From JAYKJB01 sp035284745 [NCBI: Candidatus Sericytochromatia bacterium] (GTDB lineage Bacteria; Cyanobacteriota; Sericytochromatia; S15B-MN24), in contig JAYKIL010000002.1 in assembly GCA_035284745.1 (NCBI GenBank), forward strand, positions 1-42,000: DNA of 42,000 nt, read 5' to 3'. The notes under the pieces were generated by a model. The model ran no database searches and was not told the origin of the DNA. It saw only the letters and a program-made list of their open reading frames with translations. Each line of letters begins with the position of its first letter. The first letter of the stretch is position 1. The position numbers and the translations under genes are program-made. Positions 8,917 through 41,855 of the stretch are shown one piece after another.

Positions 8917-10512
8917 TTAACCAGCAAGAAGCTTGCGTTTTTGCTCTTCGAGTACTTCGAGCAAAACGCGTTTGACCTGTTCTTCTGTGCCCACGTGAGC
9001 GGTATGTTTGAGCAGCGATTCTGTTAATTGGCTAATGAATGCCCTGGTGAGAGCGACGTTGCGGGGATCGTTGATTGCGCGAAGCATCGTGGTGTGGGCC
9101 TGTGCCATGCTGTCGCCGATGGCGCGCCTGAGCAATTCCTCCGGCAGTTGACCGAACACCGGCAAGGTCTTTAACTGTGTGTAGGCGGGCGTGCTCTCAA
9201 GCGCCTGTTGCGCCGCGCTATTTGCGAGCGATTCCAGAGCAGGACGCACATCAGGCAGAACTTTTTCAACGATCATCAGCAAATTGGCCTCGATTAATTC
9301 TACAAGTTCTGCACGTTGCTTTGGATTTAGCGTATTAAGGGCCTTCTCAAGCTCAAACTCACGGATTCCCTGTTGATAGTTCGAGAGCAGTTTGACGTTC
9401 ACCAAGTCCGCCACGATATCGAGTGGTTTTGTGACATAGGGGCTGATGACGGCAACGGGATTGATCAGTCCGAGACGTTCCATACGAGCTCCTACCGAAA
9501 TGATTCGGACCGCGTGTAAGGGACCCTGCAACGAGGGGGGGAGGGTGTAAAGCAGCAGCGGCAGAAAGTAAATCACGTCATACCAGCGGGCGAGAACGAA
9601 CAGACGAAAATTAGGGTAGACACCGCGTCGAACCCCAACCCAGCCCCGAAGAATGAATTCTGCCGCGAAGATAGGGATAAACATACAATCGATGACCCAA
9701 AAGTGGTCGGCCGGACCTCCGTCTTCACCATAGGTCTGCCAATAGTTCCGGGCCAGCAGAGGGGTGATTTGGCTCTGGAACCAGCGCTTTTCTGTCTCGA
9801 GCCGTTCTGGGGTTAGGTTGTCGGCTGTCCAAAATCCGTCCAATGGACGGGTCGTTGGTGAAGAGCGCTCGGGGAGTCGGTTGGCGGCCCGCGAACCAAT
9901 CACAGCCGTCGTGACGGAAATTTTGTCCCACGGGCGGGAACGAAGCTTGAAAGTGGCTTCAAGCCGTTGAATGCTCAGGGGGTCGTACCATATTTTGAGG
10001 TCGGCGACACTCGCCCCTTGCGCCCAAGCATGTTCGCGAAATTTCGATTTGAGGCGTTCGGACACCCCTCGTAAGCCCGCCGTAACAAAGGGGTCTTCCT
10101 TCAAGATGGCCACGCTTTTCTGTTGCATGTCCCGTATTGCCTGCCTCGCCGCGGGCGACGCGGGACGCTCAGACAGTATTTGAAAGGTTTTCTCCGCCGC
10201 TGTCTGATAGCCCAAAGTCACTCGGTGCGGCTCGATTCCCTTGACACGGTCGTAGGAATCAACCAGTTCGCGCCAGCCTTGCGCTTGGTAGAAGTGACGC
10301 AAATCCAGGTAGGTGTAATCGATCAACACCAACGACAAGTTGACCAAGGCCAAAACCAAAATCAACCAGTTGGCCGGAACATCAAAAAAACGCCACGATC
10401 GCCCTTCCCGAGAGGAAGGGTCTAGGGCGCGTTCTAAAGGCGGACGCAACAGTCGGTCGACTGTGCGCCTCAACTCCGCATCGTCCTGCGGAATGCTGGC
10501 TCTTTTGTTCAC
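8917..10512 (-). CDS. Unknown three-segment membrane protein
   Basis: Not recognised by name; similar-looking proteins occur in cyanobacteria. Membrane segments are predicted at ~48-66 (WLILVLALVNLSLVLIDY), ~271-290 (FWVIDCMFIPIFAAEFIL) and ~310-327 (YDVIYFLPLLLYTLP). A ~200-residue charged, helical domain separates the first two. A long soluble helical tail follows at ~365-531, rich in Glu and Leu. The middle segments loosely resemble part of an ion-channel-like core, but no selectivity filter is visible. GTG start, poorly spaced from GAGG. The gene lies 29 bases after infA and 38 before the ATP-grasp gene, so it is probably co-transcribed with both. Confidence 0.7.
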   Translation of the reverse strand: MNKRASIPQDDAELRRTVDRLLRPPLERALDPSSREGRSWRFFDVPANWLILVLALVNLSLVLIDYTYLDLRHFYQAQGWRELVDSYDRVKGIEPHRVTLGYQTAAEKTFQILSERPASPAARQAIRDMQQKSVAILKEDPFVTAGLRGVSERLKSKFREHAWAQGASVADLKIWYDPLSIQRLEATFKLRSRPWDKISVTTAVIGSRAANRLPERSSPTTRPLDGFWTADNLTPERLETEKRWFQSQITPLLARNYWQTYGEDGGPADHFWVIDCMFIPIFAAEFILRGWVGVRRGVYPNFRLFVLARWYDVIYFLPLLLYTLPPSLQGPLHAVRIISVGARMERLGLINPVAVISPYVTKPLDIVADLVNVKLLSNYQQGIREFELEKALNTLNPKQRAELVELIEANLLMIVEKVLPDVRPALESLANSAAQQALESTPAYTQLKTLPVFGQLPEELLRRAIGDSMAQAHTTMLRAINDPRNVALTRAFISQLTESLLKHTAHVGTEEQVKRVLLEVLEEQKRKLLAG

Positions 10513-15508: not shown

Positions 15509-16645
15509 TCAGGTTTCGGGGTGGAGAAAATATTCCTTTATCCTTGCAAGGCCGGTGGCGAGGTTGTCTGGGGATGTCACCCACGAGATGCGTAACCAGC
15601 CCTCCGCGCCGAATGCGCTGCCTGGGATGGTAACCACCCGATGGCGTTTGAGCAATTCCAATGCGGTCGCGTATGAATTTTGCCCCAAGGTTTGTGGAAT
15701 GGCTAGCAGGGCATAAAACGCGCCTTCGGGGACGATGTGCTTCAGCCCATATTGCGTGAGCATTTTTACCAGGATTGCTCGCTGACCCGCATAGTGGGCG
15801 CGCGTGGTGTCTAGCGGCTCCGCTGATTGGAAGATTGACAGGGCGACCTGTTGTGAGAAGGTGCTGGCCGCCGTGACGATAAATTGATGGGCCTTACTCG
15901 CTGCGGATTGGATGTCGAGCGGCGCGAGCAACCAACCGAGGCGGAGGCCCGTCAAGGAGTGACTTTTCGAGAGGCTGCCTGCAATCAAGGTGCGGTCGTA
16001 CCAAGAGGCCAGTGAACGGGGCTGGGGTGTGACATAACACAGTTCGCGATACACTTCATCCACGAGGACATAGGGGCGCCGATCCCCGATTTGATACAAG
16101 CCCCTTGCAAGGGCTTGGTAATTCTCCTCTCGCCACACGCGACCGGTCGGATTGGCCGGAGAGGCCAAGATGAGAAGCCGTGTGTCAGGCGTGATCGCCT
16201 CTAACAATTTTTCTGCGTCGGGGGCGAAATCGTTGTCAGGAAGCAGGGAAACAGGACGATAAGGGACTCCCTCCATCTGGCATATCTTGGCGTAGGCGGG
16301 ATAGGCAGGTTCCACGATGATGGCTTCATCGGCGCCCGGTGCGCACACGGACTTGATGGCAAGAAAAATGGCCTCTTGGGAGCCGACGGTCACACAAACA
16401 TTTTCACTTTGGTTGAGGCCTGGATAACCGTACCGATGCGCGATGGCTTGTCTCAACGCCGGCAAGCCCGCGTTCGGCGTGTAGGGGCATCCATTGTCCT
16501 CGACCCATCGCAACGCGTCGCGAAATGCGCGCGTGTCTGGGGGCAGGATCGGCTCACCGAGGCCCAAGTCGATGTCACCAGGCTCTTTTTGAGCATTGAT
16601 AGCTCGGATGACAGATGGCGCCAGTTGGTTGAAGACGGGGTTCAC
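15509..16645 (-). CDS. Class I/II PLP aminotransferase, probable DapC
   Basis: Fold-type I aminotransferase. PLP landmarks: Asn165 (SPANPTG), Asp196 (VLVDEVY), Lys227 in SLSKSHSLTGLRLGW (Schiff base) with Arg235 as the phosphate contact, and Arg in GWLRISWV binding the substrate carboxylate. Because dapD and dapE lie just upstream on the same strand, the best guess is N-succinyl-L,L-diaminopimelate aminotransferase (DapC), the step between them; that is inference from context. GTG start with no clear ribosome site. A strong minus-strand terminator ends only ~12 bases before this GTG, so how the gene is transcribed is unclear. The 3' end overlaps a cluster of GGTGTC repeats. Confidence 0.8.
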   Translation of the reverse strand: MNPVFNQLAPSVIRAINAQKEPGDIDLGLGEPILPPDTRAFRDALRWVEDNGCPYTPNAGLPALRQAIAHRYGYPGLNQSENVCVTVGSQEAIFLAIKSVCAPGADEAIIVEPAYPAYAKICQMEGVPYRPVSLLPDNDFAPDAEKLLEAITPDTRLLILASPANPTGRVWREENYQALARGLYQIGDRRPYVLVDEVYRELCYVTPQPRSLASWYDRTLIAGSLSKSHSLTGLRLGWLLAPLDIQSAASKAHQFIVTAASTFSQQVALSIFQSAEPLDTTRAHYAGQRAILVKMLTQYGLKHIVPEGAFYALLAIPQTLGQNSYATALELLKRHRVVTIPGSAFGAEGWLRISWVTSPDNLATGLARIKEYFLHPET

Positions 16646-16656
16646 AGCTGGATACG

Positions 16657-16681
16657 AAAAAAAACCCCGCCAGTGCGGGGT
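16657..16681 (-). terminator. Rho-independent terminator after the ferredoxin gene
   Basis: On the minus strand ACCCCGC-ACTG-GCGGGGT is followed by seven more T residues, a textbook terminator. It lies 10 bases past the ferredoxin stop and about 12 bases before the GTG of the aminotransferase gene on the same strand. It could act as an attenuator for the latter. Confidence 0.88.
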
Positions 16682-16690
16682 AAGGACGGT

Positions 16691-16930
16691 TTAGCCGATG
16701 TCTCCATCGTCGCCAATGGCATTCACAGGACAGCCCGCCATGGCCTCCTCGCAGGCCGCTTCTTCATCGGCGGAAGAGGGTTGCTTATAACACACGTCGT
16801 GGGTTCCATCTTCAACCGCTCGGAAGTTATCGGGTGCCAAGGATTCGCACAGGTTGCAAAAGATGCAAGTCTCATCGACGTAATATTTGCCAGCGGCGTT
16901 GTCTGCGTATTTTGTTGCTTTGTCAGCCAT
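16691..16930 (-). CDS. Small 4Fe-4S ferredoxin
   Basis: Cytoplasmic one-electron carrier of 79 residues. The cluster ligands are Cys22, Cys25 and Cys28 in CIFCNLC, with Cys67 in GCPVNAIGDDG, the single 4Fe-4S pattern. Extra Cys47 and Cys60 lie between them, so a second cluster cannot be built from the usual CxxCxxC. The protein is strongly acidic, as ferredoxins are. It has its own candidate promoter about 100 bases upstream and its own terminator, so it is probably a single-gene unit between dapE and the aminotransferase gene. Its redox partner is not visible here. Confidence 0.85.
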   Translation of the reverse strand: MADKATKYADNAAGKYYVDETCIFCNLCESLAPDNFRAVEDGTHDVCYKQPSSADEEAACEEAMAGCPVNAIGDDGDIG

Positions 16931-17027
16931 ATGATTGCGCGCCTCTCAAGAGGGTGTGGACGGAGAACGTACCCATCCGGGCCCGTGGAGATCCCTCCGT
17001 GCCGCGGGAGCACGCCCCCACGAACGT

Positions 17028-17056
17028 ATCATGCCAGAATGCAAGTTATCCGGCAA
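17028..17056 (-). promoter_or_regulatory. Candidate promoter of the ferredoxin gene
   Basis: On the minus strand TTGCCG (17056-17051) and CATGAT (17033-17028) are 17 bases apart, with TG correctly placed for an extended -10. The predicted leader of about 90 bases is GC-rich and can form small hairpins (CGTGC...GCACG and GGAG-GGAT-CTCC). Confidence 0.45.
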
Positions 17057-17086
17057 CCTCGCTTTTATTGCATCCTTACCGTGTTG

Positions 17087-18157
17087 TTATCGCAGAAGCT
17101 CAAAAAGGGCGTCGCGGCATTGCAGAAGATGTGCGACAGCGATAGATTCTCTCGCTTGATGCGCTTGAGCTGTTTCACCGGGCCCAAAGTTGAGCGCGGG
17201 AATTCCGTATGCGGTGAGCCTCGCCACATCGGTCCACGCCTGTTTTGATTCACGTTCAAGATGGGCCTGCCGTTGCCAGGCGGCAACCAAAGGGTGGTCG
17301 AGACACACATCGCCTGCCGGGGCTTCGTCTATCCACTCTATCGTGGCCTCCCCTTGCACCAGCGCCTCCAGTTCCGCCTTCGCCTGCATCACCGACTTCC
17401 CGGGTGCAAATCGCAAATTCACATTCAGCGTGAACCTGTCCGGGATTACATTTCGTGAGTTGCTCGTTGCGGCGTTTGTGGCACTCATGACCTCGTAGAA
17501 AATGAGGTCATCATATTGCACTGCAACACGTTCTCGTGACTTCAGGCGCTGAAGGAAAGGAACTGCCGCGTAGATGGCGTTACTTCCCTGCCAAGGACGA
17601 GCACTGTGCGCACGGGTCCCTGAAAAATTCACGAGGGCGTGGAGCCCGCCCACGCATCCTAACTGGAGCTTGTTGTCCGTGGGTTCAAGGCAAATTCCCA
17701 ATTCGATCGGCGGGAGCGCCCGCTTTTCGAAGACGACCTCGAGTCCGTTTTCGTTGGCGGGCCCTTCCTCTCGGTCGTAAAAAACCGCCACCAGATTTGC
17801 CTTCTGCAGCGCGTGGTGCGCGCACAACAGGTCAATCATGACCGCAAGACCCCCTTTCATATCAGCGGCCCCACATCCAAAAACACGGCCATTGTCAACG
17901 CCAAGAGGTTGGTCTAGAGAGGGTTTTACGGTATCTAGGTGTCCAAAAAGCCCGATGGTCGGCCGGCCGATTATCGCAGGGGGTGTGGCGATGAGGAGGT
18001 TTCCAATGCGCGTGGTGCGCGTGTTAGGAGAGTTCTGGGCCAAGTATTCTTCAATCCAGCGGCACAAGGGGCCTTCGTCGCCGGTAACGGAGGGAACGCT
18101 ACACAGCGCCAAGGTCAGCTCGGCCAGGGACATCCCTTTGGCCTGGAAACCGCTCAC
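17087..18157 (-). CDS. dapE: Succinyl-diaminopimelate desuccinylase
   Basis: M20-family metallopeptidase that removes succinate from N-succinyl-L,L-diaminopimelate, giving the precursor of meso-diaminopimelate and lysine. Metal and catalytic residues: His73 and Asp75 in GHLDT, Asp99 in GAADMKGG, Glu130/131 in YDREEGP, Glu158 in CLEPTD and a late His in QAHQARE. The dimerisation domain lies in the middle (~175-285). The 356-residue length and AADMKGG style match the actinobacterial type more than the enterobacterial one. The GTG start overlaps the dapD stop as GTGA with GAGG seven bases upstream, so it is translationally coupled to dapD. Confidence 0.88.
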   Translation of the reverse strand: MSGFQAKGMSLAELTLALCSVPSVTGDEGPLCRWIEEYLAQNSPNTRTTRIGNLLIATPPAIIGRPTIGLFGHLDTVKPSLDQPLGVDNGRVFGCGAADMKGGLAVMIDLLCAHHALQKANLVAVFYDREEGPANENGLEVVFEKRALPPIELGICLEPTDNKLQLGCVGGLHALVNFSGTRAHSARPWQGSNAIYAAVPFLQRLKSRERVAVQYDDLIFYEVMSATNAATSNSRNVIPDRFTLNVNLRFAPGKSVMQAKAELEALVQGEATIEWIDEAPAGDVCLDHPLVAAWQRQAHLERESKQAWTDVARLTAYGIPALNFGPGETAQAHQARESIAVAHLLQCRDALFELLR

Positions 18158-18978
18158 ACCGGCACCTCAAAGGTTCGCAGTACGTCGTTTAAACTGGTTT
18201 TGGTGTCCGTGCTGGCGGTCCGTTGCCCTATGATCAGGGCACAAGGGACCTGGAACTCGCCCGCGGGGAATTGTTTCGGCATCATCCCGGGAATGACCAC
18301 CGCCCTCGCAGGGACCCGCCCCTTGATAATTCGAGGGGATGAGCCTGTCACATCGACAATGGGCGTTGATGAAGTCAGAACAACCCCGGCGCCCAAGACG
18401 GCACCGGTCTCCACCCGTACGCCCTCCACCACGATACAACGTGAACCGATGAATGCATCATCTTCGACGATGACCGGACGTGCCGCCGGTGGTTCAAGCA
18501 CTCCTCCGATTCCAACCCCGCCCGACAGGTGGACATTTTTCCCTATTTGGGCGCAGCTGCCGACAGTCGCCCACGTATCGATCATTGTGCCAGCGCCCAC
18601 ATAGGCGCCAATATTCACGTAGCCTGGCATCAGGACGCAACCAGGTTCCAGAAAAGCGCCATGACGGGCAACCCCCGGCGGCACAACCCGGATGCCCAAT
18701 CCTTCCAAATTTTTCTTGGTCGGGACTTTGTCAAAAAACGCCAGATCACCGGCCTGACTGGGCGACAGCGATTGGGTCGCGAAATAGAGTAAGATTGCTT
18801 CCTTTACCCATTCGTGGACGAGCCAATCGCCGTCTGACGGTGTCGCTACACGGATTCTCCCGGTGTCGAGAAGTTCGATGGCGGCCTGGATGGCTTCGAC
18901 CACCTCGGGGCGCTTCAGGTGCGCGCGGTCAGCAAAAGCGCTCTGGATTACAAGGGCGAGAGAATCAGGCGTGTTCAT
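18154..18978 (-). CDS. dapD: Tetrahydrodipicolinate N-succinyltransferase
   Basis: Transfers succinate from succinyl-CoA to tetrahydrodipicolinate, the entry step of the succinylase branch of lysine and diaminopimelate synthesis. The N-terminal helical domain (~1-100) includes WLVHEWVKEAILLYFA. A left-handed beta-helix of hexapeptide repeats follows (YVNIGAYVGAGTMIDTWATVGSCAQIG, then VHLSGGVGIGGVLEP and VIVEDDAFIGSRCIVVEGV). The C-terminal part has TGSSPRIIKGRVPARAVVIPG. At 274 residues it equals the classic DapD length. ATG start with GGAG six bases upstream. It is first gene of a dapD-dapE pair. Confidence 0.92.
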   Translation of the reverse strand: MNTPDSLALVIQSAFADRAHLKRPEVVEAIQAAIELLDTGRIRVATPSDGDWLVHEWVKEAILLYFATQSLSPSQAGDLAFFDKVPTKKNLEGLGIRVVPPGVARHGAFLEPGCVLMPGYVNIGAYVGAGTMIDTWATVGSCAQIGKNVHLSGGVGIGGVLEPPAARPVIVEDDAFIGSRCIVVEGVRVETGAVLGAGVVLTSSTPIVDVTGSSPRIIKGRVPARAVVIPGMMPKQFPAGEFQVPCALIIGQRTASTDTKTSLNDVLRTFEVPV

Positions 18979-19038
18979 GCCAGGCTCCGTTTTGGGTATG
19001 AGGTGCAAGGAAGGGGTTAATTCGCGCGAGCAACCCGC

Positions 19039-19067
19039 ATGATAGGGCATCAGGTGCGTGCTGGCCA
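19039..19067 (-). promoter_or_regulatory. Candidate dapD promoter
   Basis: On the minus strand TGGCCA (19067-19062) and TATCAT (19044-19039) are separated by 17 bases, with four and five consensus bases. It lies about 60 bases upstream of the dapD ATG in the divergent region shared with the signalling operon. Confidence 0.4.
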
Positions 19068-19108
19068 CGGTGATTCGACCGGGCGACCCGCAACGCCGGC
19101 TGGTTCGC

Positions 19109-19137
19109 TTGACGCGTAGCGACCCGACACCTATTCT
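19109..19137 (+). promoter_or_regulatory. Promoter of the signalling operon
   Basis: TTGACG (19109-19114, five of six) and TATTCT (19132-19137, four of six) are 17 bases apart. The predicted start near 19144 gives a 60-base leader before the GTG of the first response-regulator gene. Confidence 0.5.
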
Positions 19138-19205
19138 GTGACCGCGGAAAGTGACAGAGAAACCCACGGATTGGTAGTTTACGGGAACGATTGCGAGGAG
19201 TGTTC

Positions 19206-20207
19206 GTGTCCAAGAAGTATTCGATTTTGGTCGTGGATGATGAACCCGATAACCTCTTGCTGCTTGAGCGTGTTTTGCGGCGGGAGTACAACGTGTTCTC
19301 GGCGAGCAGCGGACAAGAAGCGCTGGAATTTCTTGAGAGCATGGACGTGGATATGATTATCTCCGACCAACGAATGCCTCAAATGACGGGTGCTGAGTTG
19401 CTTGGCGCGGCGTATTTGCGTAATCCTGACCAAGTGAGAATTCTACTGACGGCATACTCCGACGTGAAGGATATTATTGCTGCCATCAACGCGGGACACA
19501 TTTATCAGTACCTGGCAAAGCCTTGGGATCCTGATGAAATGAAACTGGTGGTAAGGCGCTCGCTGGAGTCGTACCAACTGACCCTGGATAATCGAAAACT
19601 TCTCTCGGAATATCGCAATGACGAGGCGATGGTCCTCTCCACGTTCGCCAATTTGGTCGCGAAACTCGAGGAACGGGCGCCCCACTGCACCGGCCGGGCC
19701 GTGCGAGTGAAGGGGTATGCCAGTGCTTTGGCGCGAGAGTTGCGTCTGTTTGGCGAGGAGATGACCCAGTTGGAGGCGGCAGCGCACGTGTATCAACTGG
19801 GGGCTCTGGTCCTGCCGGATGCGCTTTTGAATGCCTCCCCGGAGAGCCTCGATGAAGTCTCCCGCCAGCGTTTGGCGCATTCCGCGGGCTTCACCGAGGA
19901 TCTGTTGATGCCGTTGCCATTCTTTGTCAAAGCCACCCCTCTGCTGGGGGTTCTGGGCGAGCGTTTCGATGGGACGGGGCCGCGCGGGACCAGTGGGGCT
20001 GAAATTCCCCTCATTGCGCGCATCTTGCAAATTGCAATCGCATTTGAGGAGCGTGTGCAAGGGCAACCGGGGACACCGGGTCTCGCCCCCAACCTAGCCA
20101 TCGAAAAGCTTCGTGCGCTAAAGGGGGGTGCCTTGGACCCTGAGTTGGTCGAGCAGTTTGCGAACCTGGTGGCATCGAATCCGGACCTTACCCTATGTCA
20201 CAGTTGA
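19206..20207 (+). CDS. Response regulator with degenerate HD-GYP output domain
   Basis: Two-component receiver protein. The receiver (~5-125) has acidic Asp11/Asp12, phosphoacceptor Asp54 (IISDQRMP), LLTAYSD and Lys105 (LAKPWD), so it should be phosphorylatable. The C-terminal half (~140-330) has the layout of an HD-GYP cyclic-di-GMP phosphodiesterase, but the catalytic residues are lost. The HD pair is YQ (196-197, in YQLGALVLPDALL), the HHE motif is LGE (250-252), and GYP is reduced to GP in RFDGTGPRG. It probably binds a partner or ligand without hydrolysis. GTG start chosen for GAGGAG five bases upstream; a TTG 15 bases earlier is possible. Its stop overlaps the next gene by 13 bases. Confidence 0.82.
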   Translation: MSKKYSILVVDDEPDNLLLLERVLRREYNVFSASSGQEALEFLESMDVDMIISDQRMPQMTGAELLGAAYLRNPDQVRILLTAYSDVKDIIAAINAGHIYQYLAKPWDPDEMKLVVRRSLESYQLTLDNRKLLSEYRNDEAMVLSTFANLVAKLEERAPHCTGRAVRVKGYASALARELRLFGEEMTQLEAAAHVYQLGALVLPDALLNASPESLDEVSRQRLAHSAGFTEDLLMPLPFFVKATPLLGVLGERFDGTGPRGTSGAEIPLIARILQIAIAFEERVQGQPGTPGLAPNLAIEKLRALKGGALDPELVEQFANLVASNPDLTLCHS

Positions 20208-21184
20208 TCCTGGCCGACAAGTCTGATTTGTTCCGGCGCTCCATCTCCGCTGTCTTGCAAAACGACGGGCACGAAGTGGTGACTGCCGATACAGGGCAGA
20301 AAGTTCTTCAATTGATGCATTCGCTGAAGCCAGCAGCGATTATTCTCGATTCTGAAACCCCCGACCCCAGCGGACTTGAAACCTTGCTCCTTTTGAAACG
20401 GAATCCGCAGTTCCGGCGGGTGCCCGTGATTCTATTGGTGAGGGACACGACGCCACCGCAGCTCCTCAACACCATAAAGGCGGTTGCGGATGCAGTGATG
20501 TTTAAGCCATTGGACCTTAATGCGCTTTTGAAGAACCTGGCCACATTGGTGATACCGGTTCCTGCCGTGAACCAACCCGTTGAAATTACCTTTGGCGCGA
20601 CCCGCCTGGTGGGCCGGGTCCGTTTTGTGGATCAATATGGAACTTTATACTTCGACAAGGAAGCCCAACGCCTTCCGAACGGAGGAATTGGTCGTACGAT
20701 GGGCATCGCCCCGTTGGGCAGTATTGGAACCTTGGGTTTTGAGAATGACGGGGGGCAACGCGTTTTTCAACGTGTTCTACTCGACGAGGAGAATGAAACC
20801 GGCCTGGCCGTCTATCCTGCAGGGGATCCCGGGGTCGCGGACCCTCCAGAGATTTTGCGGGTGCCTGTGAACTATCAAGGCCGCTATCTGGTCCCTGGTT
20901 CGGTGGTGAAGGCGGCGGTGGTGGCACAAATCCACGGCCAAGGCGCCGTTCTATCTGGTTTGGACGAGGAGCCTCGCTTCAACAGCCCCATTCAAATGAC
21001 CGTATTAACCTCTAGCATCGGCGCGGAGGTGGGTGTAACGGTCAACGGAAAAGTTACTTCGACCCGAACGAGCAATGCCGGACTGTTTGAGGCGGAAGTG
21101 ATTCTCACGGAACCGCCGGGTGCAGCCTATGTGAATTTACTCGCCGAGGCTTCGTCTGGGCGTCCATTCCGACATGCGGGCTGA
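20195..21184 (+). CDS. Response regulator with unrecognised C-terminal region
   Basis: Receiver domain at ~1-120: LILADKSD (Asp8), phosphoacceptor Asp52 (IILDSETPDPSG) and Lys104 (MFKPLDLN). The remaining ~210 residues are beta-rich. They seem to hold two similar modules (~125-215 and ~225-320), the second containing RYLVPGSVVKAAV and VGVTVNGKVTSTRTSNAG. This resembles the general look of PilZ or YcgR-type folds, but I see neither RxxxR nor DxSxxG, so I do not call PilZ. No DNA-binding motif is present. The ATG lies within the end of the upstream regulator gene. It is an output or relay protein of the local histidine kinases by inference from the operon. Confidence 0.75.
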   Translation: MSQLILADKSDLFRRSISAVLQNDGHEVVTADTGQKVLQLMHSLKPAAIILDSETPDPSGLETLLLLKRNPQFRRVPVILLVRDTTPPQLLNTIKAVADAVMFKPLDLNALLKNLATLVIPVPAVNQPVEITFGATRLVGRVRFVDQYGTLYFDKEAQRLPNGGIGRTMGIAPLGSIGTLGFENDGGQRVFQRVLLDEENETGLAVYPAGDPGVADPPEILRVPVNYQGRYLVPGSVVKAAVVAQIHGQGAVLSGLDEEPRFNSPIQMTVLTSSIGAEVGVTVNGKVTSTRTSNAGLFEAEVILTEPPGAAYVNLLAEASSGRPFRHAG

Positions 21185-21200
21185 ACACGATGGGGGGCGT

Positions 21201-22049
21201 ATGAATTCGTCGTCATCGACTTCATCGAGGTCAGCCCAACGTTTGGCGCAGTCCGAACGCCTCCAGAGCCTGGGGCAGTTGGTTGCTGGGGTCATTCACG
21301 AACTAAATAATCCTTTAACGATCGTGAATGCTAATCTGCAAATTTTGGCAGAGTATGTCGAGCAGCAGGCCCGTTTGCTTGAGATGTATCGCAGCCTGGG
21401 TGTGAACACCAAGGAAGTAGATGAGTACATAGAAGAGATAGAGGCGGATTATCTCACTCAAGAAGTGCCTCGGGTCCTGGCTTCTTGTCGAGAAGGCGCA
21501 TCGCGTGCACGGAGTTTGGTTGACGAACTTCGTCGCTTTTCCATCGCGAATCAGCACGAGGTCGTCCTGATTGATTTGCGAAGTTTGCTGACATCCACGG
21601 TGCGTTTGGTTGAGAGTTCGTATCGCGCGCGGGTTGAGTTTCGCGTGGAATTTGGACAACTTCCTCCGATTACCGGTGTGACCGGGCATATTCAGCAAGT
21701 CTTTATGAATCTGATTGTCAACGGGTGCCAGGCCATTCCGGAGAAAGGCGTACTGACGTTACGCTCTCGTGTGACCGGAGATGAAGTGATTGTAGAGGTA
21801 GCCGACACGGGTGCTGGCATATCAGCAGACGTGATGCCTCAGATTTTTGAACCGTATTTTTCAACCAAGGGCCCCTGCGAAGGCACTGGCTTGGGCTTAC
21901 CCATCACCAAGCGAATCATTGAGAAACACGGCGGTCGCCTCGAGGTACACTCCGTCGTCGGGGAAGGAACTATTTTTAGGGTTTTTCTGCCGAGGGAATG
22001 TGACCCAGGATTGGCGGAAAATCCAGGCTCTCCTTATGATTTTTCTTAA
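21201..22049 (+). CDS. Soluble sensor-less histidine kinase
   Basis: Short (282 residues) cytoplasmic kinase with no membrane segment and almost no sensor region. The DHp domain carries the phosphoacceptor His33 in IHELNNPLTIV; its two helices are separated by an unusually long linker (EIEADYLTQEVPRVL). The HATPase domain has the N box (HIQQVFMNLIVNGCQAI), G1 (VADTGAGIS), F box (IFEPYFSTK) and G2 (EGTGLGLPITK). Start at ATG 21201, just after GGGGGG; ATG 21174 would overlap the previous gene and add nine residues. The partners are presumably the two receiver proteins encoded upstream. The next gene follows after 14 bases. Confidence 0.85.
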   Translation: MNSSSSTSSRSAQRLAQSERLQSLGQLVAGVIHELNNPLTIVNANLQILAEYVEQQARLLEMYRSLGVNTKEVDEYIEEIEADYLTQEVPRVLASCREGASRARSLVDELRRFSIANQHEVVLIDLRSLLTSTVRLVESSYRARVEFRVEFGQLPPITGVTGHIQQVFMNLIVNGCQAIPEKGVLTLRSRVTGDEVIVEVADTGAGISADVMPQIFEPYFSTKGPCEGTGLGLPITKRIIEKHGGRLEVHSVVGEGTIFRVFLPRECDPGLAENPGSPYDFS

Positions 22050-22063
22050 GGGGGGCTAGTCAC

Positions 22064-24154
22064 GTGTTTGGCAACTTCACGACACCCTCCCAACGGCGCA
22101 TCAACGACCGATTTGAATTGATTGAACTCATCGCTGATGGCGGCATGGGCCCGCTGTATCGGGCGCAAGACCACTTGCTGGGTCAGCAGGTTTTTCTCAA
22201 GGTGATAGAGGGAGACCATCCGATTGCTCCGGCCCGTTTGTACCGCCTGAAGCAAGAGTTCCTTCGCACCCCGGGTGTTTCGACCGAAGCCGGACAGGAG
22301 TTGTTTGAAATTGGTTTAACTGATGATGGCTCGTTGTTTCTCGCACTGCAAAATTCTTCTACGCCGTCATCTACGCCAAACGTGCGAACGACGGAGGCTG
22401 TTGACCCCTCTTGGTTCGACCTTCGGGCCCGATCAGAGTTGCTCGAAGGCGAGCACTTAGAGAGCCTTCTCGCTTGGACCGCGCGCTGGGTAGGGGCTGA
22501 GTGGGGGCTTTTCCAGGCTTTTGGGTCGGATGGTAGAGAGCGTCGCTCGTGTGTGTTCGGGGCATCGCCGCAAGAGGTGTTCGAAGTGGCTCGGATGCCT
22601 TTGGAGCGAGCCCGTTATGAGGGCGAGCCGTGTGAGTTGTCACAGGATGGGCGTGTTGGGTACGCCCTCCCCCTGACACTGGACGAAAAATTGTTGGGTT
22701 GCCTCTGGTTTGGGGGTGAATCAGGGGGGCTAAAAATTCCGCGCATTGTGACCATCAGCCACGACTGGTCACTGGCCCTTGCTGCTGACCAGCGGATGCG
22801 AGAGGTGCTGGATGACAAACACCACCTCGAACAGTTAAACGAATTGGCTCGGGCGGTTTCCGCCACTTTGGATATGAGCGCCATTCTTGATATGGTCCTG
22901 AGACAGGCCTTGGATGTGTCTGAGGCGGAGCAAGGCGCTGTTTTCTGGGGGGTTGAACGCCTGGCCACACGGGATCGCCAAGGACTCGCGGTGCCAGACC
23001 TTCAGGTCAGTCAAAGTGTCATTCAGCAAGTCTTGGCGCAGGGGATTCCGGTGGCTTTGATTGATGTCCGCGAAGATGAGCGTTTTGCAACCAAACACAG
23101 CATTATGAATTTGCGTTTGCGTTCCGTGATGTGTGTTCCTCTGCGGGCAGGCGAGACCGTGATGGGGGTTTTGTACGTGAGTTCGAAAAGTGTTGCACGG
23201 ACCTTTGGCCCCAATGATTTATCCGTGCTCGAGGGCTTAGCTGGCCAGGTGAGCTTGGCTTTGGCGAATGCCCGGGCTTATCAGACCATTCGAGAATTGA
23301 ATGCAGGCTTGGAGGAGAAGGTGTCTCAACGCACCGCCGAGCTTGAGTCGGCGGTGCGTGAACTTAAGAAGATGCAAGGCCAACTCGTGCAAGCCGAGAA
23401 GATGTCATCGCTCGGTCAAATGGTGTCTGGTGTTGCCCATGAGCTTAACAACCCACTCAATTTTATCCACGGAAATACTAAAGTCTTCAAAGGGTATGCG
23501 CAGGATTTGTTTGGCTTGATTGAAGTTTTTGAGCGCAAGATGCCTTCCGATCGTGACGTTGAAAAATTTAAGCAGGAAATTGATTACGATTACCTGCAAG
23601 ACGATGTCCAAAAAACCATTGACAGCGTGGTGAAAGGCACCGTTCGTTGTCAGAAAATTGTGGCTGATCTCAAAACATTCTCGGGCCACGATGAAGCAGA
23701 GCTGAAGGAAACAGACCTTAAAGAAGGCCTTCAGAGCGCTGTCTCAATGGTCCAAGGTCGATTTGGGGATCGGGTCGTTTATGAGCTGACGGCGACAGAT
23801 GTTCCCGTCTTGAATGCTTACGGGAAACAGCTAAATCAAGCATTTTTGGCCTTGTTGACCAATGCCGCTCAGGCCATCAGCGGTGAGGGGACAGTGTCGG
23901 TATCGCTCTTCCAAGAGAACGAAGACCTGGTGGTGAGGGTTACTGATACGGGGTGTGGAATTCCGCCGGAGAATTTGAATAAAATTTTTGATCCGTTTTT
24001 CACGACACGGCCCATTGGAGAAGGCACCGGATTGGGATTAACCACTGCCTACTCGGTTGTAGAACGTCACCAAGGTCGCATCGAGGTGCAGACCACCCCC
24101 GGAAAAGGTTCAACCTTTACGATTCGACTGCCCGTTGTGGGCATCCCTGAGTAA
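22064..24154 (+). CDS. Hybrid: Ser/Thr-kinase N-lobe fragment, GAF domains, histidine kinase
   Basis: Cytoplasmic sensor kinase of 696 residues with an unusual front end. Residues ~17-97 read like the N-lobe of a Hanks-type Ser/Thr kinase: RFELIELIADGGMGPLYRAQD (Gly-rich loop), FLKVI with Lys46, then a region ending LTDDGSLFLALQ at the hinge. The kinase then stops; no HRD, DFG or C-lobe follows. A weak GAF-like domain (~110-240) and a clear GAF domain (~255-405) come next, then a coiled coil (~410-450). DHp follows with His459 in HELNNPLNFIHGN, then HATPase (TDTGCGIPPENL, IFDPFFTTR, GEGTGLGLTT). GTG start eight bases after AAGGGGGG. The DHp linker resembles that of the preceding kinase. Confidence 0.85.
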   Translation: MFGNFTTPSQRRINDRFELIELIADGGMGPLYRAQDHLLGQQVFLKVIEGDHPIAPARLYRLKQEFLRTPGVSTEAGQELFEIGLTDDGSLFLALQNSSTPSSTPNVRTTEAVDPSWFDLRARSELLEGEHLESLLAWTARWVGAEWGLFQAFGSDGRERRSCVFGASPQEVFEVARMPLERARYEGEPCELSQDGRVGYALPLTLDEKLLGCLWFGGESGGLKIPRIVTISHDWSLALAADQRMREVLDDKHHLEQLNELARAVSATLDMSAILDMVLRQALDVSEAEQGAVFWGVERLATRDRQGLAVPDLQVSQSVIQQVLAQGIPVALIDVREDERFATKHSIMNLRLRSVMCVPLRAGETVMGVLYVSSKSVARTFGPNDLSVLEGLAGQVSLALANARAYQTIRELNAGLEEKVSQRTAELESAVRELKKMQGQLVQAEKMSSLGQMVSGVAHELNNPLNFIHGNTKVFKGYAQDLFGLIEVFERKMPSDRDVEKFKQEIDYDYLQDDVQKTIDSVVKGTVRCQKIVADLKTFSGHDEAELKETDLKEGLQSAVSMVQGRFGDRVVYELTATDVPVLNAYGKQLNQAFLALLTNAAQAISGEGTVSVSLFQENEDLVVRVTDTGCGIPPENLNKIFDPFFTTRPIGEGTGLGLTTAYSVVERHQGRIEVQTTPGKGSTFTIRLPVVGIPE

Positions 24155-24198
24155 TGGATGGTATTCTGTAACGCCTCCCTTGCGAAAAGGAGTAGATT

Positions 24199-24600
24199 TT
24201 GGCGCGTTCTCAAATACCGGTGGAAGATGTTCTCAAATGGTTGCAACAGGCGCTGGGGAAGTCTTTGAAACATGTGGGTGTGACTGTTGACTTCGATTAC
24301 AGCGGTCGTGAGCGCGGCTCTTTGACGGTCTGGGGAGAAGGCAAAGTATTGCAGACTTCCTATTTCTCGTCTTCAGAGATTCGCGCGTTGCGTGACGGCG
24401 GGCTCGTGGCTTTGGAAAAACAACGAGAAGCCTTGGTCTCTCAGGTGGATCGCGTCCTGAATCCTCCGCCCCCTCAACCCGCCAATTTGACGGTTCTGTT
24501 TCCTGCACGGCGGGGTCGGGCCGCGTCCAAATCGGAGTCCGAAGGCGCTCTGAGGGAAACCAGTGACAACGATTCGCCGGAAGCTTCATCTGAAGAGTAG
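24199..24600 (+). CDS. Small protein of unknown function, end of signalling operon
   Basis: I do not recognise it. It has 133 residues. The N-terminal ~90 look folded (VEDVLKWLQQALGKSLKHVGV, then a beta stretch GSLTVWGEGKVLQTSYF and a helix EIRALRDGGLVALEKQREALV). Then come PPPPQP and a charged, Ser/Glu-rich tail. No signal peptide or membrane segment. TTG start, six bases after AAGGAG, a good site. It follows the hybrid kinase by 44 bases on the same strand and is likely co-transcribed. Its stop codon lies in a perfect hairpin shared with the convergent gene. Confidence 0.65.
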   Translation: MARSQIPVEDVLKWLQQALGKSLKHVGVTVDFDYSGRERGSLTVWGEGKVLQTSYFSSSEIRALRDGGLVALEKQREALVSQVDRVLNPPPPQPANLTVLFPARRGRAASKSESEGALRETSDNDSPEASSEE

Positions 24601-24615
24601 GGCTCTCGAGCCCTA
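24598..24615. terminator. Hairpin spanning two convergent stop codons
   Basis: TAGGGCT-CTCG-AGCCCTA is a perfect seven-pair hairpin. Its outer TAG is the stop of the plus-strand gene, and the mirror-image TAG is the stop of the minus-strand gene. There is no T-run on either side, so termination strength is doubtful; it may instead protect both 3' ends. Confidence 0.45.
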
Positions 24616-25269
24616 CGTGGTCTGAGGGCTCGTTAATGGGTGATAATTTGCAAGGGTCTGATAGACCTCTGAATTATCGACCTGTTCGAAATTGACGTAG
24701 TAGCTGCCCACCGCGCTGAAAAATTGCGGGACGTCCAGAGCAAAAATGGCGTTGACCAGACTTTTGAGCCGCTGGGATGCTGCAGCAGAAATAACAGGCG
24801 CTGCGACAATGATTTGCTTCGGGGCCTCCCGTCGCAACGCTCTCAGTGCTGCTTCCAGTGTCATGCCAGTGGCTACGCCGTCGTCGACAACCACGACAGT
24901 GCGGCCTTCCGTGGAGGTTTCTGGAAAGTTTTGTCTGAATGCGGCTTCTTGTTTTTCCGCGGACTTGAGGGCGCTGAGGCGTAAACCTTCGCAATCTGCG
25001 GCGCTGATGTGTAGCCAGTCGACGAGGCTGGTGTTCCAAGCCGTCGTACCGTTGGATGTCACCGCGCCGAGTGCTAATTCTGGTTGACCGGGAACGCCGA
25101 TTTTTTTTACAACACGGACGTCGAGAGGGGCTCTCAGGGCAGCGGCAATTTGCCCAGCCACAGGAACCCCGCCTCTGGGCAGCGCAATGATAACGGGTTG
25201 GTTATCGCTGTGCCCCTGGAGGAGAGTGGCAAGTCGACGTCCTGCATCTTCTCGGTTATTAAAGAGCAT
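24613..25269 (-). CDS. Phosphoribosyltransferase-family protein
   Basis: Type I phosphoribosyltransferase fold of 218 residues; substrate unknown. The PRPP-binding loop is VVVVDDGVATGMT at 125-137. Upstream are IIALPRGGVPVAG (~27-39), the pyrophosphate loop region, and VVKKIGVPGQPELALGAV, all typical of a widespread family of free-standing predicted phosphoribosyltransferases often linked to salvage or stress. ATG start preceded by GGAG at seven bases; upstream in-frame sequence runs through the tRNA gene and is not coding. It lies 84 bases downstream of the tRNA on the same strand. Confidence 0.82.
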   Translation of the reverse strand: MLFNNREDAGRRLATLLQGHSDNQPVIIALPRGGVPVAGQIAAALRAPLDVRVVKKIGVPGQPELALGAVTSNGTTAWNTSLVDWLHISAADCEGLRLSALKSAEKQEAAFRQNFPETSTEGRTVVVVDDGVATGMTLEAALRALRREAPKQIIVAAPVISAAASQRLKSLVNAIFALDVPQFFSAVGSYYVNFEQVDNSEVYQTLANYHPLTSPQTT

Positions 25270-25353
25270 CGTCTCTCTCCTCGCCCAGAGTCGTAAAGGA
25301 ATCATGGCGAGTGCAGAGGGGAGATGCAAGCAGCAGGCAGGGCAAAAATTCAG

Positions 25354-25426
25354 TGGAAGCTGTGGGGATCGAACCCACGACCAAGCCATTATGAGTGGCC
25401 TGCTCTAACCGCTGAGCTAAGCTTCC
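25354..25426 (-). tRNA. tRNA with CAU anticodon, probably tRNA-Ile2
   Basis: The 73 bases fold into a full cloverleaf. Acceptor stem GGAAGCT/AGCTTCC with discriminator A; D arm GCTC...GAGC; anticodon arm GGCCA-CTCATAA-TGGCT with anticodon CAU; five-base variable loop; T arm GTGGG-TTCGATC-CCCAC. CAU can mean Met or, with lysidine at the first position, Ile (AUA). The D-arm-to-variable stretch (GGTTAGAGCAGG...CTTGGTCG) is closer to bacterial tRNA-Ile2 than to elongator Met, so I favour Ile2. CCA is not encoded and must be added after transcription. Confidence 0.92.
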
Positions 25427-37690: not shown

Positions 37691-38710
37691 ATGAGTGGGC
37701 TTGACACACAACGACTCGCAGACGTGTGCGAGCCATTCAGAAGCCTTGCTATTGCAGGGACGGCGAAAAATGCGGGCAAAACGACGGCGTTAAATTTTCT
37801 CGTACACGCCTTGACGGAAAGAGGCCATGTTCTCGGGTTATCTTCTGTGGGGCGTGATGGCGAGGCGGTCGATCAGATCACCAATCGTCCCAAGCCACGG
37901 ATAAGGCCTCCGATGGGGACACTGGTCGCTACTTCCCATGAATCAGCACTTTACTCGCAAGCGACCCTGCGCTTGCTGGAGTCGACGCCTTTTCGAACGG
38001 CGCTGGGCCCCGTGGGAATTTATCGGGTCGATAAGGTTGGATTCGTTGAAGTGGCAGGGCCTGTAAAGGTGCGCGAGGCAACTTTGCTTCTGGGAATGCT
38101 GTTAAATTGCGGAGCTGACAAGGTTTTACTGGATGGCGCGGCGGATCGGCGCACATTTATCTCGTGTGGCGTCGAGGGCTTTGTGCTCGCAACCGGCTTG
38201 GTTACTGCCGATGACCTGTCGGGGGTGGTGGCCGAAACCCAACGGGTGCTGCAGTGTTTACAGCTTCCGGCTCCGCCGTTGGAATGGGCTAAAATCTGTA
38301 TGGAACAATCGTCTCCAGGCGCTGTGATGGATCGTGGCCTGAAGCCGTGGTTAGCTTCGACTTTCCTGGGTGACTTCTCCGGATATTTAAATTGGCTGCC
38401 TCAAGGCTGTCGGGCTTTGTTTGTTCCGGGTGCGTTAGTTGATGGGTTGCTTGAGACCCTTTTGAAGGGGGCCCATCTCCCAGCTATTGTCGTATCTTCT
38501 GGGACGCACGTGTTGGCGGCGCAAACACTTCTCGAACGCTATTTTAGGCGAGGCGGAAAACTTTATTCTCTGAATCCCTTGCGGGCGTCGGCCTTGACCG
38601 TCAATCCCACGGCACCCGACGGGCGAAGCTGTGATCCTGCCGAGTTGCTGGCGGTGATGCAACACGAGTTTCCGGGTTTGCCTGTGGTGGATGTTGGTCC
38701 CCACTGGTAA
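37691..38710 (+). CDS. kamB: P-loop protein, probable KamB-like lysine 5,6-aminomutase reactivase subunit
   Basis: P-loop NTPase-like protein of 339 residues. Walker A is GTAKNAGKTT at 23-32, an unusual pattern that I associate with KamB proteins of lysine-fermentation clusters. GRDGEAVD and VLLDGAADRRTFIS (~146-159) follow. KamB is thought to work with the MutS-related ATPase KamC to reactivate lysine 5,6-aminomutase, whose adenosylcobalamin is easily inactivated. The assignment rests on the loop pattern and on kamD/kamE lying 0.76 kb downstream, beyond a minus-strand PadR gene. I see no KamC in this window. GAGAG precedes the ATG. Otherwise it would be an unnamed P-loop protein. Confidence 0.6.
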   Translation: MSGLDTQRLADVCEPFRSLAIAGTAKNAGKTTALNFLVHALTERGHVLGLSSVGRDGEAVDQITNRPKPRIRPPMGTLVATSHESALYSQATLRLLESTPFRTALGPVGIYRVDKVGFVEVAGPVKVREATLLLGMLLNCGADKVLLDGAADRRTFISCGVEGFVLATGLVTADDLSGVVAETQRVLQCLQLPAPPLEWAKICMEQSSPGAVMDRGLKPWLASTFLGDFSGYLNWLPQGCRALFVPGALVDGLLETLLKGAHLPAIVVSSGTHVLAAQTLLERYFRRGGKLYSLNPLRASALTVNPTAPDGRSCDPAELLAVMQHEFPGLPVVDVGPHW

Positions 38711-38737
38711 TCGCGCCGGTTGTTTTCAACCCGAAGC

Positions 38738-39265
38738 CTAGCCGAGCTGTTCGATGGTCTGTTGCAACCAGCGCTGATAAAGTTCACACTGCTGTTGGCC
38801 GAGTTCAAGCGCCAGGCGCGGGCCCACGTGGTGCAATGGGTTTTGGTTATTCTCGTTCAGGCTTGCGGCTAAGTTTTTCAAGTGTTCCTGTCGGGTTTCC
38901 AGTTCGGAGGCATATTGTCGCAGGCTGCTCAGGGCCAAAGTTGGCTCAATGACGCCGAGCGTCCAAACCTTCATCACCAAGGTGTCGCGCATCGACTTCG
39001 GTTCGAGGTCGGCCGCGACCCAAGACTCCAAGGCGGAGCGGCCCTCGGCTGTGATGCTGTAAACCTTTTTCGACGGCTTGGCGCTTTGCTGCACCACCTC
39101 AAACGTCACCAGCTTTTCACGAGACAAGGCGGCGAGTTCGGGATAGATTTGGCTGTGTTTGGCGGACCAAAAGAAATTGACGCTACTTTGAAATTGTTTT
39201 CGGAGATCGTAACCCGTCAAGGGTTCACGAGCGAGTAGGCCCAGAATGGCAAAACGAAGGGACAT
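38738..39265 (-). CDS. PadR-family transcriptional repressor
   Basis: Winged-helix repressor. The N-terminal domain (MSLRFAILGLLAREPLTGYDLRKQF, then WSAKHSQIYPELAALSREKLVTFEV and KKVYSITAEGRSAL) is textbook PadR. The C-terminal ~85 residues form the helical Vir_act-like dimer arm (LSSLRQYASELETRQEHLKNLAASL). Its own start and kamD diverge across 200 bases, so it is the natural candidate to control kamD-kamE and itself. The inducer is unknown. ATG start; no strong ribosome site. It converges on kamB, with a small GGTTG-TTTT-CAACC hairpin between them. Confidence 0.88.
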   Translation of the reverse strand: MSLRFAILGLLAREPLTGYDLRKQFQSSVNFFWSAKHSQIYPELAALSREKLVTFEVVQQSAKPSKKVYSITAEGRSALESWVAADLEPKSMRDTLVMKVWTLGVIEPTLALSSLRQYASELETRQEHLKNLAASLNENNQNPLHHVGPRLALELGQQQCELYQRWLQQTIEQLG

Positions 39266-39290
39266 ATTCTAAGCGTTTTCTCTAAAATCA

Positions 39291-39313
39291 AGACTAGGAA
39301 ACGTTTTTAGTCT
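39291..39313. promoter_or_regulatory. Dyad repeat between padR and kamD, candidate operator
   Basis: AGACTA (39291-39296) and TAGTCT (39308-39313) are perfect inverted repeats 11 bases apart, with the palindrome AAACGTTT nested in the middle. It lies 26-48 bases upstream of the padR ATG, where an autorepressor would bind. Assignment to PadR is inference. Confidence 0.4.
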
Positions 39314-39391
39314 ATTTCGTATTTGTGTCACGGCGCCAATTATTCATTCCGTACACCAAGTGTGTCTATCCTGTGGCTCGATGTCAAGCGG

Positions 39392-39412
39392 GCCGATGCC
39401 GATGCCGATGCC
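39392..39412 (+). repeat. Hexanucleotide repeat (GCCGAT)x3 plus GCC
   Basis: Three perfect head-to-tail copies of GCCGAT followed by GCC, in the leader region of kamD about 60 bases before its start. It lies in short open frames (26 and 34 codons) that I do not consider proven genes. Copy number may vary. Confidence 0.7.
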
Positions 39413-39468
39413 GCCTATGCAAATGCGCTTCGAGCGGCTTAGAATATTGATGAATTGGAGATTTGCTT

Positions 39469-41040: not shown

Positions 41041-41060
41041 TGATAGGAGAGCTTTAGACG

Positions 41061-41855
41061 ATGCGCATGTCTTCATCCGGTTCGTCGTCGTCAAATTCTC
41101 CGGCTTCTGTCAATTTACAGGCCATCAAGGCATATGGAGACACGCTGGATGACGGGGCGGTACAGCTGAGTTTCTGTTTGCCAGTTCCGGCCGGGCCCCA
41201 AGCGGAGGAAGCGGCTAAACTGCTGCTATCAAAAATGGGTCTGGATGACCCATTAATCACCACCATCGAGAGCATGGGCCCTTCACTGACAATGTTTGTG
41301 GCGTATGGGCGCTGTCCTTACACCGTGGACTACGCATCGATTGATCTTCCCTTGGCAAAGTTTCCCGTGTTGGATATGGACGGCATTGACGCACTGGTGG
41401 AGAGAGAGTTTGGACGTCGCTTGACGGTGATAGGTGCGTGTATTGGCACAGATGCCCATACTGTGGGCATTGATGCCATTATGAATATGAAGGGATATGG
41501 CGGGCATTATGGCCTCGAACGTTATCGTATGATTCGCGCCATCAACATGGGGGCACAAGTGCCGAACGAGGTCTTGGTGGCCCGTGCCATTGCAGAACAG
41601 GCGGATGCAATCTTGGTTTCCCAGATTGTTACGCAAAAGAACGCTCACATTACAAATTTGACGCAGTTGTCTGAAATGCTGGAGGCGGAGGGCTTACGAG
41701 AGCGCTTGGTCTTGATTGCAGGAGGGCCGCGAATTTCTCACCAATTGGCTACTGAGTTGGGTTATGATGCGGGGTTTGGCCCTGGAACATTCGCAGAAGA
41801 TGTGGCAAGTTTTGTGGCATTCGAACTGTGTCGTCGGGCGGGCAAGAACGCCTGA
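41061..41855 (+). CDS. kamE: Lysine 5,6-aminomutase beta subunit
   Basis: Small subunit, carrying the B12-binding Rossmann domain. The base-off motif DxHxxG is present as DAHTVG, with His133 as the lower cobalt ligand. MKGYGG holds Lys144, the residue that forms the internal aldimine with PLP in the clostridial enzyme; both numbers coincide with the characterised protein. AILVSQIVTQK and LIAGGPRISHQLA complete the cobalamin fold. ATG start ~12 bases after AGGAG; ATG 41067 is possible. The extreme N-terminus is Ser-rich. It forms one transcript with kamD. Confidence 0.94.
   Translation: MRMSSSGSSSSNSPASVNLQAIKAYGDTLDDGAVQLSFCLPVPAGPQAEEAAKLLLSKMGLDDPLITTIESMGPSLTMFVAYGRCPYTVDYASIDLPLAKFPVLDMDGIDALVEREFGRRLTVIGACIGTDAHTVGIDAIMNMKGYGGHYGLERYRMIRAINMGAQVPNEVLVARAIAEQADAILVSQIVTQKNAHITNLTQLSEMLEAEGLRERLVLIAGGPRISHQLATELGYDAGFGPGTFAEDVASFVAFELCRRAGKNA

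What the first reader, a model, noticed from the sequence alone, without database searches (positions are those of the whole stretch)
19206..24600. Five-gene signalling operon with pseudoenzyme and hybrid components
Two receivers, two histidine kinases with matching long DHp linkers and one orphan small protein are packed with overlaps or short gaps behind one TTGACG/TATTCT promoter. None of the outputs is a recognisable DNA-binding or catalytic domain. One is a dead HD-GYP, the second an unrecognised beta-rich region, and the last a small unknown protein. The combination looks like a closed phosphorelay whose readout is protein binding. I know of no described system with this set.
Basis: partly seen in the sequence, partly recalled or inferred. 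Interest (0 to 1): 0.65.

Follow-up and report, generated by a model that had tools for sequence, protein, structure and literature searches.

The report
Two-kinase operon with dead HD-GYP regulator
A compact set of five bacterial signalling genes, two protein kinases and two regulators with worn-out parts plus one unknown small protein, looks like a new variant of known circuits in which a dead enzyme works by binding other proteins.

Summary
The five genes are real: 19206-24600, one strand, tightly packed, coding scores like neighbours. RR1 is a canonical receiver on a catalytically dead HD-GYP. HK3 is a sensorless kinase. HK4 resembles cyanobacterial Ser/Thr-plus-histidine kinases, but only the N-lobe of the Ser/Thr kinase is left. 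RR2 has a pseudo-receiver (second DD acid is Lys, Thr is Val) and an unmatched output. The fifth protein has no credible relative. RR1 and HK3 homologues lie within 2 kb of each other on Burkholderia and Vibrio plasmids (11 of 12 listed rows), and the HD-GYP motif is altered in both relatives read. Described circuits, NosK/NosR and Shewanella HnoK/HnoS/HnoD, already combine histidine kinases with a degenerate HD-GYP regulator; HnoD is reported to act by protein binding. So 'no described system' fails for the core, and 'closed phosphorelay' is unsupported: no Hpt or hybrid receiver was found. The half-kinase, pseudo-receiver regulator and orphan protein remain unusual. Conservation of the whole five-gene set could not be tested.

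The parts
19109..19137 (+). sigma-70-like hexamers TTGACG-17-TATTCT upstream of the operon
   Evidence: not clearly above the shuffled expectation
19206..20207 (+). RR1: canonical receiver (residues 7-116) plus degenerate HD-GYP/HD_5 output (154-314)
   Evidence: Pfam; motif loss; closest NCBIfam model NosR, 252 bits against a cut-off of 400
20195..21184 (+). RR2: pseudo-receiver (5-115; D8, K9, D52, Val at the Thr position, K104) plus unmatched output of about 210 residues
   Evidence: structure model uninformative for the output
21174..22049 (+). HK3: histidine kinase without a recognised sensor domain or hydrophobic segment, long DHp, HELNN motif (H42); start perhaps at 21201
22064..24154 (+). 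HK4: Ser/Thr-kinase N-lobe, unassigned region (98-260), GAF (269-400), long-DHp histidine kinase (432-691, H459)
22100..22354 (+). N-lobe of a PknB-like Ser/Thr kinase (HK4 residues 13-97); no C-lobe seen downstream
   Evidence: NCBIfam PknB E=2.4e-8; PDB PknB E=6e-5 and StkP E=0.012 over 15-96; 11 of 11 plasmid matches to residues 1-261 lie within 3-97; forward frames read by eye
24199..24600 (+). 133-residue protein without known relatives; predicted alpha-beta-beta-beta-alpha core and a tail of low confidence
24597..24616 (.). hairpin (9-base arms) over the last stop codon, before a convergent gene; no T run
   Evidence: read; not listed as a terminator

Best explanation
A cytosolic two-kinase, two-regulator module that works like NosK/NosR and HnoK/HnoS/HnoD. 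HK4 reads a cytosolic signal through its GAF domain (and perhaps the kinase N-lobe); HK3 has no sensor and depends on a partner or acts as a second phosphate source and sink. Both carry H-E-x-x-N and are likely kinase/phosphatases for RR1, whose receiver is canonical. Phosphorylation of RR1 gates protein contacts of its dead HD-GYP, most likely with a c-di-GMP enzyme or other partner encoded elsewhere, or with RR2. RR2 is a pseudo-receiver regulator whose state is set by contacts rather than by ordinary phosphorylation. Shown: domains, active-site residues, gene order. Inferred: pairing, direction of signalling, partners, any c-di-GMP link.
For: Active-site residues kept in RR1's receiver and in HK3 and HK4. 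HD-GYP motifs lost in RR1 and also altered in its Burkholderia (HGIGK, HQYE..GTP) and Vibrio (HEIGL, HQDE..GHP) relatives. In 11 of the 12 plasmid rows listed for HK3 the same record's RR1 hit lies within 2 kb on the same strand, in two genera, at about 31-38% identity. RR1's best NCBIfam model is NosR. Precedents for degenerate HD-GYP regulators acting on other proteins: PMC6335343, PMC12570481, passages read; the latter also gives the H-E/D-x-x-T/N phosphatase motif. RR2 meets the published definition of a pseudo-receiver (PMC12632262, passages). No strongly hydrophobic segment in the five proteins (best 19-residue mean 1.59 against 3.08 in a membrane protein of the window).
Against: RR1 is well below the NosR cut-off, and matches to that model below cut-off are common: 12 of 14 control genomes ring, none over it. 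No GGDEF, EAL, PilZ, Hpt, FIST or haem-NO-binding domain appears in the Pfam results of 30 other window ORFs, so a c-di-GMP or NO link is not local. The 11 rows are largely near-copies of plasmids in two genera, so about two independent cases, and in Vibrio an EAL gene lies between the two. HK3 and HK4 may serve different regulators. Nothing explains the fifth protein.
Confidence: 0.5

Rival explanations
1. Two separate two-component pairs side by side: HK3 with RR1 and HK4 with RR2, sharing a transcript but not phosphate.
For: Two kinases and two regulators are present; an RR1-like gene and a long-DHp kinase gene are adjacent in Burkholderia pyrrocinia.
Against: RR2's receiver lacks the second DD acid and the Thr, so it is a poor ordinary substrate; HK3 and HK4 share the same DHp type without gaps.
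Confidence: 0.2
2. Closed multistep phosphorelay, with phosphate passing among the two kinases and two receivers.
For: RR2 keeps the phospho-acceptor Asp and the Lys; changes at DD, T or K do not necessarily abolish phosphorylation (PMC12632262, passage).
Against: No Hpt domain and no receiver attached to a kinase in the operon; a relay needs a His step between receivers.
Confidence: 0.05
3. A decaying locus: dead HD-GYP, half a Ser/Thr kinase and a pseudo-receiver are relics of degeneration.
For: Three parts have lost catalytic residues or a lobe; HK4 residues 99-260 have a low codon score (0.12).
Against: All five frames are open with coding scores of 0.19-0.28; tight overlaps are kept; RR1's receiver and both kinases keep their active-site motifs.
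Confidence: 0.1
4. RR2 is the true effector: a phosphorylation-independent regulator held by RR1 or the fifth protein, as a partner switch.
For: The Lys in RR2 sits where D13K makes CheY constitutively active (PMC4671073, passages; the position by the alignment and recalled CheY numbering).
Against: The same paper reports that D13K did not activate EpsW; RR2's output is unidentified and its model is unusable.
Confidence: 0.15

Closest known systems
HnoK/HnoS-HnoB/HnoC/HnoD network (Shewanella oneidensis; PMC6335343, one passage)
   Same: Two histidine kinases branching to several regulators, one with a degenerate HD-GYP that is reported to act by binding a partner
   Different: No counterpart of HnoB (EAL) or HnoC (transcription factor) among the five genes; no haem-NO sensor seen in the window; HnoD's sequence was not compared
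NosP/NosK/NosR (Burkholderia; PMC12570481, passages)
   Same: Kinase without a sensor domain next to a receiver plus degenerate HD-GYP; RR1's best NCBIfam model is NosR
   Different: Score below the family cut-off; no FIST/NosP domain found; extra kinase, extra regulator and small protein
HstK-type Ser/Thr-plus-histidine kinases of cyanobacteria (cbSTKIII; PMC2176072, passages)
   Same: Ser/Thr-kinase homology at the N-terminus, GAF, and the same long-DHp histidine kinase (35% over 390 columns)
   Different: HK4 has only the N-lobe; the C-lobe and the AAA_16 region are missing; 696 residues against 1,787-1,819 in the three relatives scanned
Atypical response regulators with pseudo-receivers (PMC12632262, passages)
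   Same: RR2 lacks two of the five conserved residues
   Different: Output domain unmatched; none of the reviewed proteins was compared

Membership tests
NosR family (NF053512) | score at or above the curated cut-off of 400 bits | tested here: not met
   252.2 bits
NosR family (NF053512) | receiver plus HD-GYP-type output | tested here: met
   PF00072 and PF13487
NosP/NosK/NosR system | FIST-domain NosP gene nearby | tested here: not met
   no FIST domain among Pfam matches of the five proteins or of 30 other window ORFs
Active HD-GYP phosphodiesterase | HDxGK and HHExxDGxGYP metal and catalytic motifs | tested here: not met
   YQLGA and LGERFDGTG-P
Hno network | two kinases and a degenerate HD-GYP regulator together | tested here: met
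Hno network | regulators HnoB (EAL) and HnoC (transcription factor) | tested here: not met
   no such domains in the five proteins; no EAL domain in 30 other window ORFs
Hno network | sequence relation of RR1 to HnoD | not tested
   HnoD was not fetched
HstK-type dual kinase | complete Ser/Thr kinase domain | tested here: not met
   only the N-lobe matches; no C-lobe seen in the forward frames downstream
HstK-type dual kinase | AAA_16 region between the kinase and GAF | tested here: not met
   absent in HK4, present in three of three plasmid relatives scanned
HstK-type dual kinase | GAF plus long-DHp histidine kinase | tested here: met
   35% identity over 390 columns
Pseudo-receiver (atypical response regulator), RR2 | lacks at least one of DD, D, T, K | tested here: met
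   DD2 is Lys and T is Val; definition from PMC12632262
Multistep phosphorelay | Hpt domain or hybrid kinase receiver | tested here: not met
   none in the five proteins or in 30 other window ORFs
PilZ output (considered for RR2) | RxxxR ... [D/N]xSxxG motif or PF07238 match | tested here: not met
   no [D/N]xSxxG in RR2; no PilZ match up to E=10 in either half of the output (within HMMER's filters)

The most novel reading that the evidence does not exclude
HK4 is a 'half-kinase' sensor: an isolated Ser/Thr-kinase N-lobe that keeps the glycine-rich loop, the beta-3 Lys and the alpha-C Glu (read from the alignment) serves as a nucleotide- or partner-binding input of a histidine kinase, and the operon is an all-contact circuit in which a dead HD-GYP, a natural 'D13K-like' pseudo-receiver and an orphan protein replace every catalytic output.
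Probability: 0.1. Interest if true: 0.6.

Novelty: new variant of a known kind. Interest (0 to 1): 0.3.

Why it matters
It adds a case to the small set of regulators in which a dead HD-GYP seems to be the output, linked to a kinase type that lies beside such regulators in distant bacteria (two genera here). A Ser/Thr kinase cut down to its N-lobe on a histidine kinase could show how such domains are reused. It does not open a new class by itself.

Tried and rejected
Rejected: closed phosphorelay (no Hpt or hybrid receiver). Rejected: PilZ as RR2's output (second half of the motif absent; no family match); the loose PilZ pattern rang 14 times in the six frames of the window, many across stops, none in RR2. 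Rejected as chance: MBG_3 on RR2's tail (E=0.18 and 0.016, below cut-off), SpmX (E=0.034), a PHROG (E=0.14) and antibody chains (best E=0.015) for the fifth protein, and ribosome-associated or dsRBD folds for it (best Foldseek E=0.069, 0 of 831 at 0.001 or better).

Led nowhere: the scan of species genomes with RR2 confirmed 1 of 126 candidate stretches, a receiver-only match. In whole genomes of that locus's phylum, 2 of 198 matched RR2's output at E<=0.01; I read one ORF and judged the similarity chance and did not read the other (51-residue frame, two stops inside). The fifth protein gave 0 of 395, an empty answer without a positive control. Plasmids: RR2 matched 992 of 72,556 records at E<=1, the listed rows weak and mostly over the receiver; one covered over 80% of it (Streptomyces, 24.9%, E=0.007), lying across two differently annotated genes, and was taken as chance. 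Viral-contig scans with four of the five proteins (not HK3): none for RR2 and the fifth protein, one kinase-domain locus for HK4, two receiver loci for RR1; their neighbourhoods were not examined. RR2's model (mean pLDDT 38) was not used for a fold search. The taxon was not settled: the best listed plasmid matches of the sigma factor are mostly Firmicutes, while HK4 looks cyanobacterial. In one search two kinases (L004, L012) were dropped because the H-box pattern missed them.

Full report
What is there. Between a divergent dapD gene and a convergent phosphoribosyltransferase-domain gene lie five same-strand genes: RR1 19206-20207, RR2 20195-21184, HK3 21174-22049, HK4 22064-24154 and a 133-residue protein at 24199-24600. 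Overlaps are 13 and 11 bases and gaps 14 and 44; HK3 may start at 21201 instead, behind GGGGGGCG. All five have codon scores like 19 neighbouring genes (0.19-0.28; neighbours' mean 0.25, minimum 0.15) and negative ones in the other forward frames; HK4 residues 99-260 alone score lower (0.12), and antisense readings score weakly positive. The quoted promoter hexamers are at 19109-19137, but the number of such sites in the region is not clearly above shuffles (5 against 2.5 +/- 1.7).

RR1. Pfam gives a receiver (E=9e-23) and HD_5 (E=3e-24). The receiver keeps DD, D, T and K (read). The best NCBIfam model is NosR (252 bits, cut-off 400), named after a regulator that is itself described as degenerate (HG-GTP; PMC12570481, passages). 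Matches to this model below cut-off are common (12 of 14 control genomes, none over it), so this is a lead to kind, not membership.

RR2. The receiver aligns with a solved response regulator (4ja2, E=9e-11). The second acid of the DD pair is Lys and the conserved Thr is Val; Asp 52 and Lys 104 are kept. By the definition in PMC12632262 (passages) this is a pseudo-receiver; the review finds about 80% of pseudo-receivers non-acidic at this DD position, so the loss is of a common kind. The Lys falls where D13K makes CheY constitutively active, but the same change failed to activate EpsW (PMC4671073, passages). The remaining 210 residues match no Pfam or NCBIfam family above cut-off, no PHROG, and no PDB sequence better than E=0.79. 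The single-sequence model is unusable there.

HK3 and HK4. Both kinase cores keep their motifs and align with each other without gaps over 251 residues at 33% identity. From H box to N box both have 137 residues; four other kinases measured have 108-110. Of the seven comparison kinases in that script, two gave no N box by the pattern and one a wrong one; by eye L002 and L003 are somewhat longer than the four. The long DHp is not private to this operon: the NCBIfam model T2SS_HK aligns over it at near equal length, and cyanobacterial, Burkholderia and Vibrio kinases share it. HK3 has no recognised sensor, and neither kinase has a strongly hydrophobic segment. HK4 has a GAF domain and, at residues ~13-97, the N-lobe of a PknB-like Ser/Thr kinase: NCBIfam PknB E=2.4e-8, PDB PknB E=6e-5 and StkP E=0.012 over 15-96, and 11 plasmid matches to residues 1-261, all within 3-97, 8 of them annotated as protein kinases and 3 without annotation. 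Pfam's kinase model does not report it even at E=10. No C-lobe motif is seen in the three forward frames downstream (read by eye). In plasmids no record covers 80% of HK4; of the 12 rows listed the six highest by bits (223-253) are cyanobacterial, three annotated as Ser/Thr kinases and three as ATP-binding sensor histidine kinases. The three that I scanned carry complete Pkinase, AAA_16, GAF and HATPase domains, and in one the N-lobe also aligns (E=0.002). HK4 thus looks like a shortened HstK-type protein. HstK itself I know from passages and the citation in PMC2176072; the original paper is not held.

Fifth protein. No match in Pfam, NCBIfam, plasmids (72,556 records) or the viral-contig scan, and no credible one in PHROGs or PDB sequences; 0 of 395 genomes of one phylum, without a positive control. 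The model (mean pLDDT 67.5) has a helix, three strands, three helices and a tail without structure; 0 of 831 Foldseek matches reach E=0.001.

Neighbours elsewhere. With RR1 as query 146 of 72,556 plasmid records match at E<=1e-10, 63 over at least 80% of it; with HK3, 1,990. Of the 12 HK3 rows listed, 11 are records in the RR1 list of 12, and in each the two hits lie within 2 kb on the same strand; the twelfth is a Nostoc plasmid. The 11 are largely near-copies in two genera, so I count about two independent cases. In Burkholderia pyrrocinia the two genes are adjacent; in Vibrio sp. THAF191c the kinase, an EAL gene, the HD regulator and an Hpt gene follow each other. Both relatives of RR1 that I read also have altered HD-GYP motifs. 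I saw no counterpart of RR2's output or the fifth protein in the annotation of these two loci.

How it most likely works. RR1's canonical receiver and the H-E-x-x-N motif of both kinases suggest that the two kinases set RR1's phosphorylation, and that the dead HD-GYP passes this on by contact. The precedent is HnoD, reported to lack phosphodiesterase activity and to suppress HnoB by direct interaction in a network with two kinases (PMC6335343, one passage). The partner here is unknown: Pfam scans of 30 other window ORFs show no GGDEF, EAL, PilZ, Hpt, receiver or histidine-kinase domain (one further ORF, 39463-41040, was scanned with NCBIfam only), and narrow motif patterns for GGDEF, EAL and intact HD-GYP found nothing. 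The pairing of kinases and regulators, the role of the N-lobe, and the place of RR2 and the fifth protein are inference.

Limits. No genome is held for the window; the one scan of species genomes found only a receiver match; and the only whole genomes open to me lay in the phylum of that match, whose record is titled Deltaproteobacteria. In the held papers, 'degenerate HD-GYP' with 'response regulator' gave 2 papers, a broader five-term search 47, of which I saw 15 in the listing, and a six-term search for a histidine kinase with a Ser/Thr N-lobe and GAF gave 0; most subscription papers are not held, so this is weak evidence of absence from print.

Changes on checking. 

Noticed in passing
15509-19167, - strand: Divergent lysine/diaminopimelate genes: an aminotransferase, dapE (Gram-positive type, above cut-off) and dapD (above one cut-off).
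   Followed up: partly
37691-41855, + strand: Lysine 5,6-aminomutase genes with the KamB reactivase (KamB and the alpha subunit above NCBIfam cut-offs; B12-binding subunit), pointing to lysine fermentation.
   Followed up: partly
24597-24616: Hairpin with 9-base arms over the stop codon of the last gene, between convergent genes, without a T run on either side.
   Followed up: partly
25354-25426, - strand: A tRNA gene overlaps the upstream part of the listed ORF 24613-25389, whose true start is probably further in.
   Followed up: no
8917-10512, - strand: A 531-residue ORF with no Pfam match at E<=0.001.
   Followed up: no
L021 1-6651: Vibrio plasmid cluster of HDOD, receiver, CheC, long-DHp kinase, EAL, degenerate HD regulator and Hpt genes, reminiscent of the Hno network.
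   Followed up: partly
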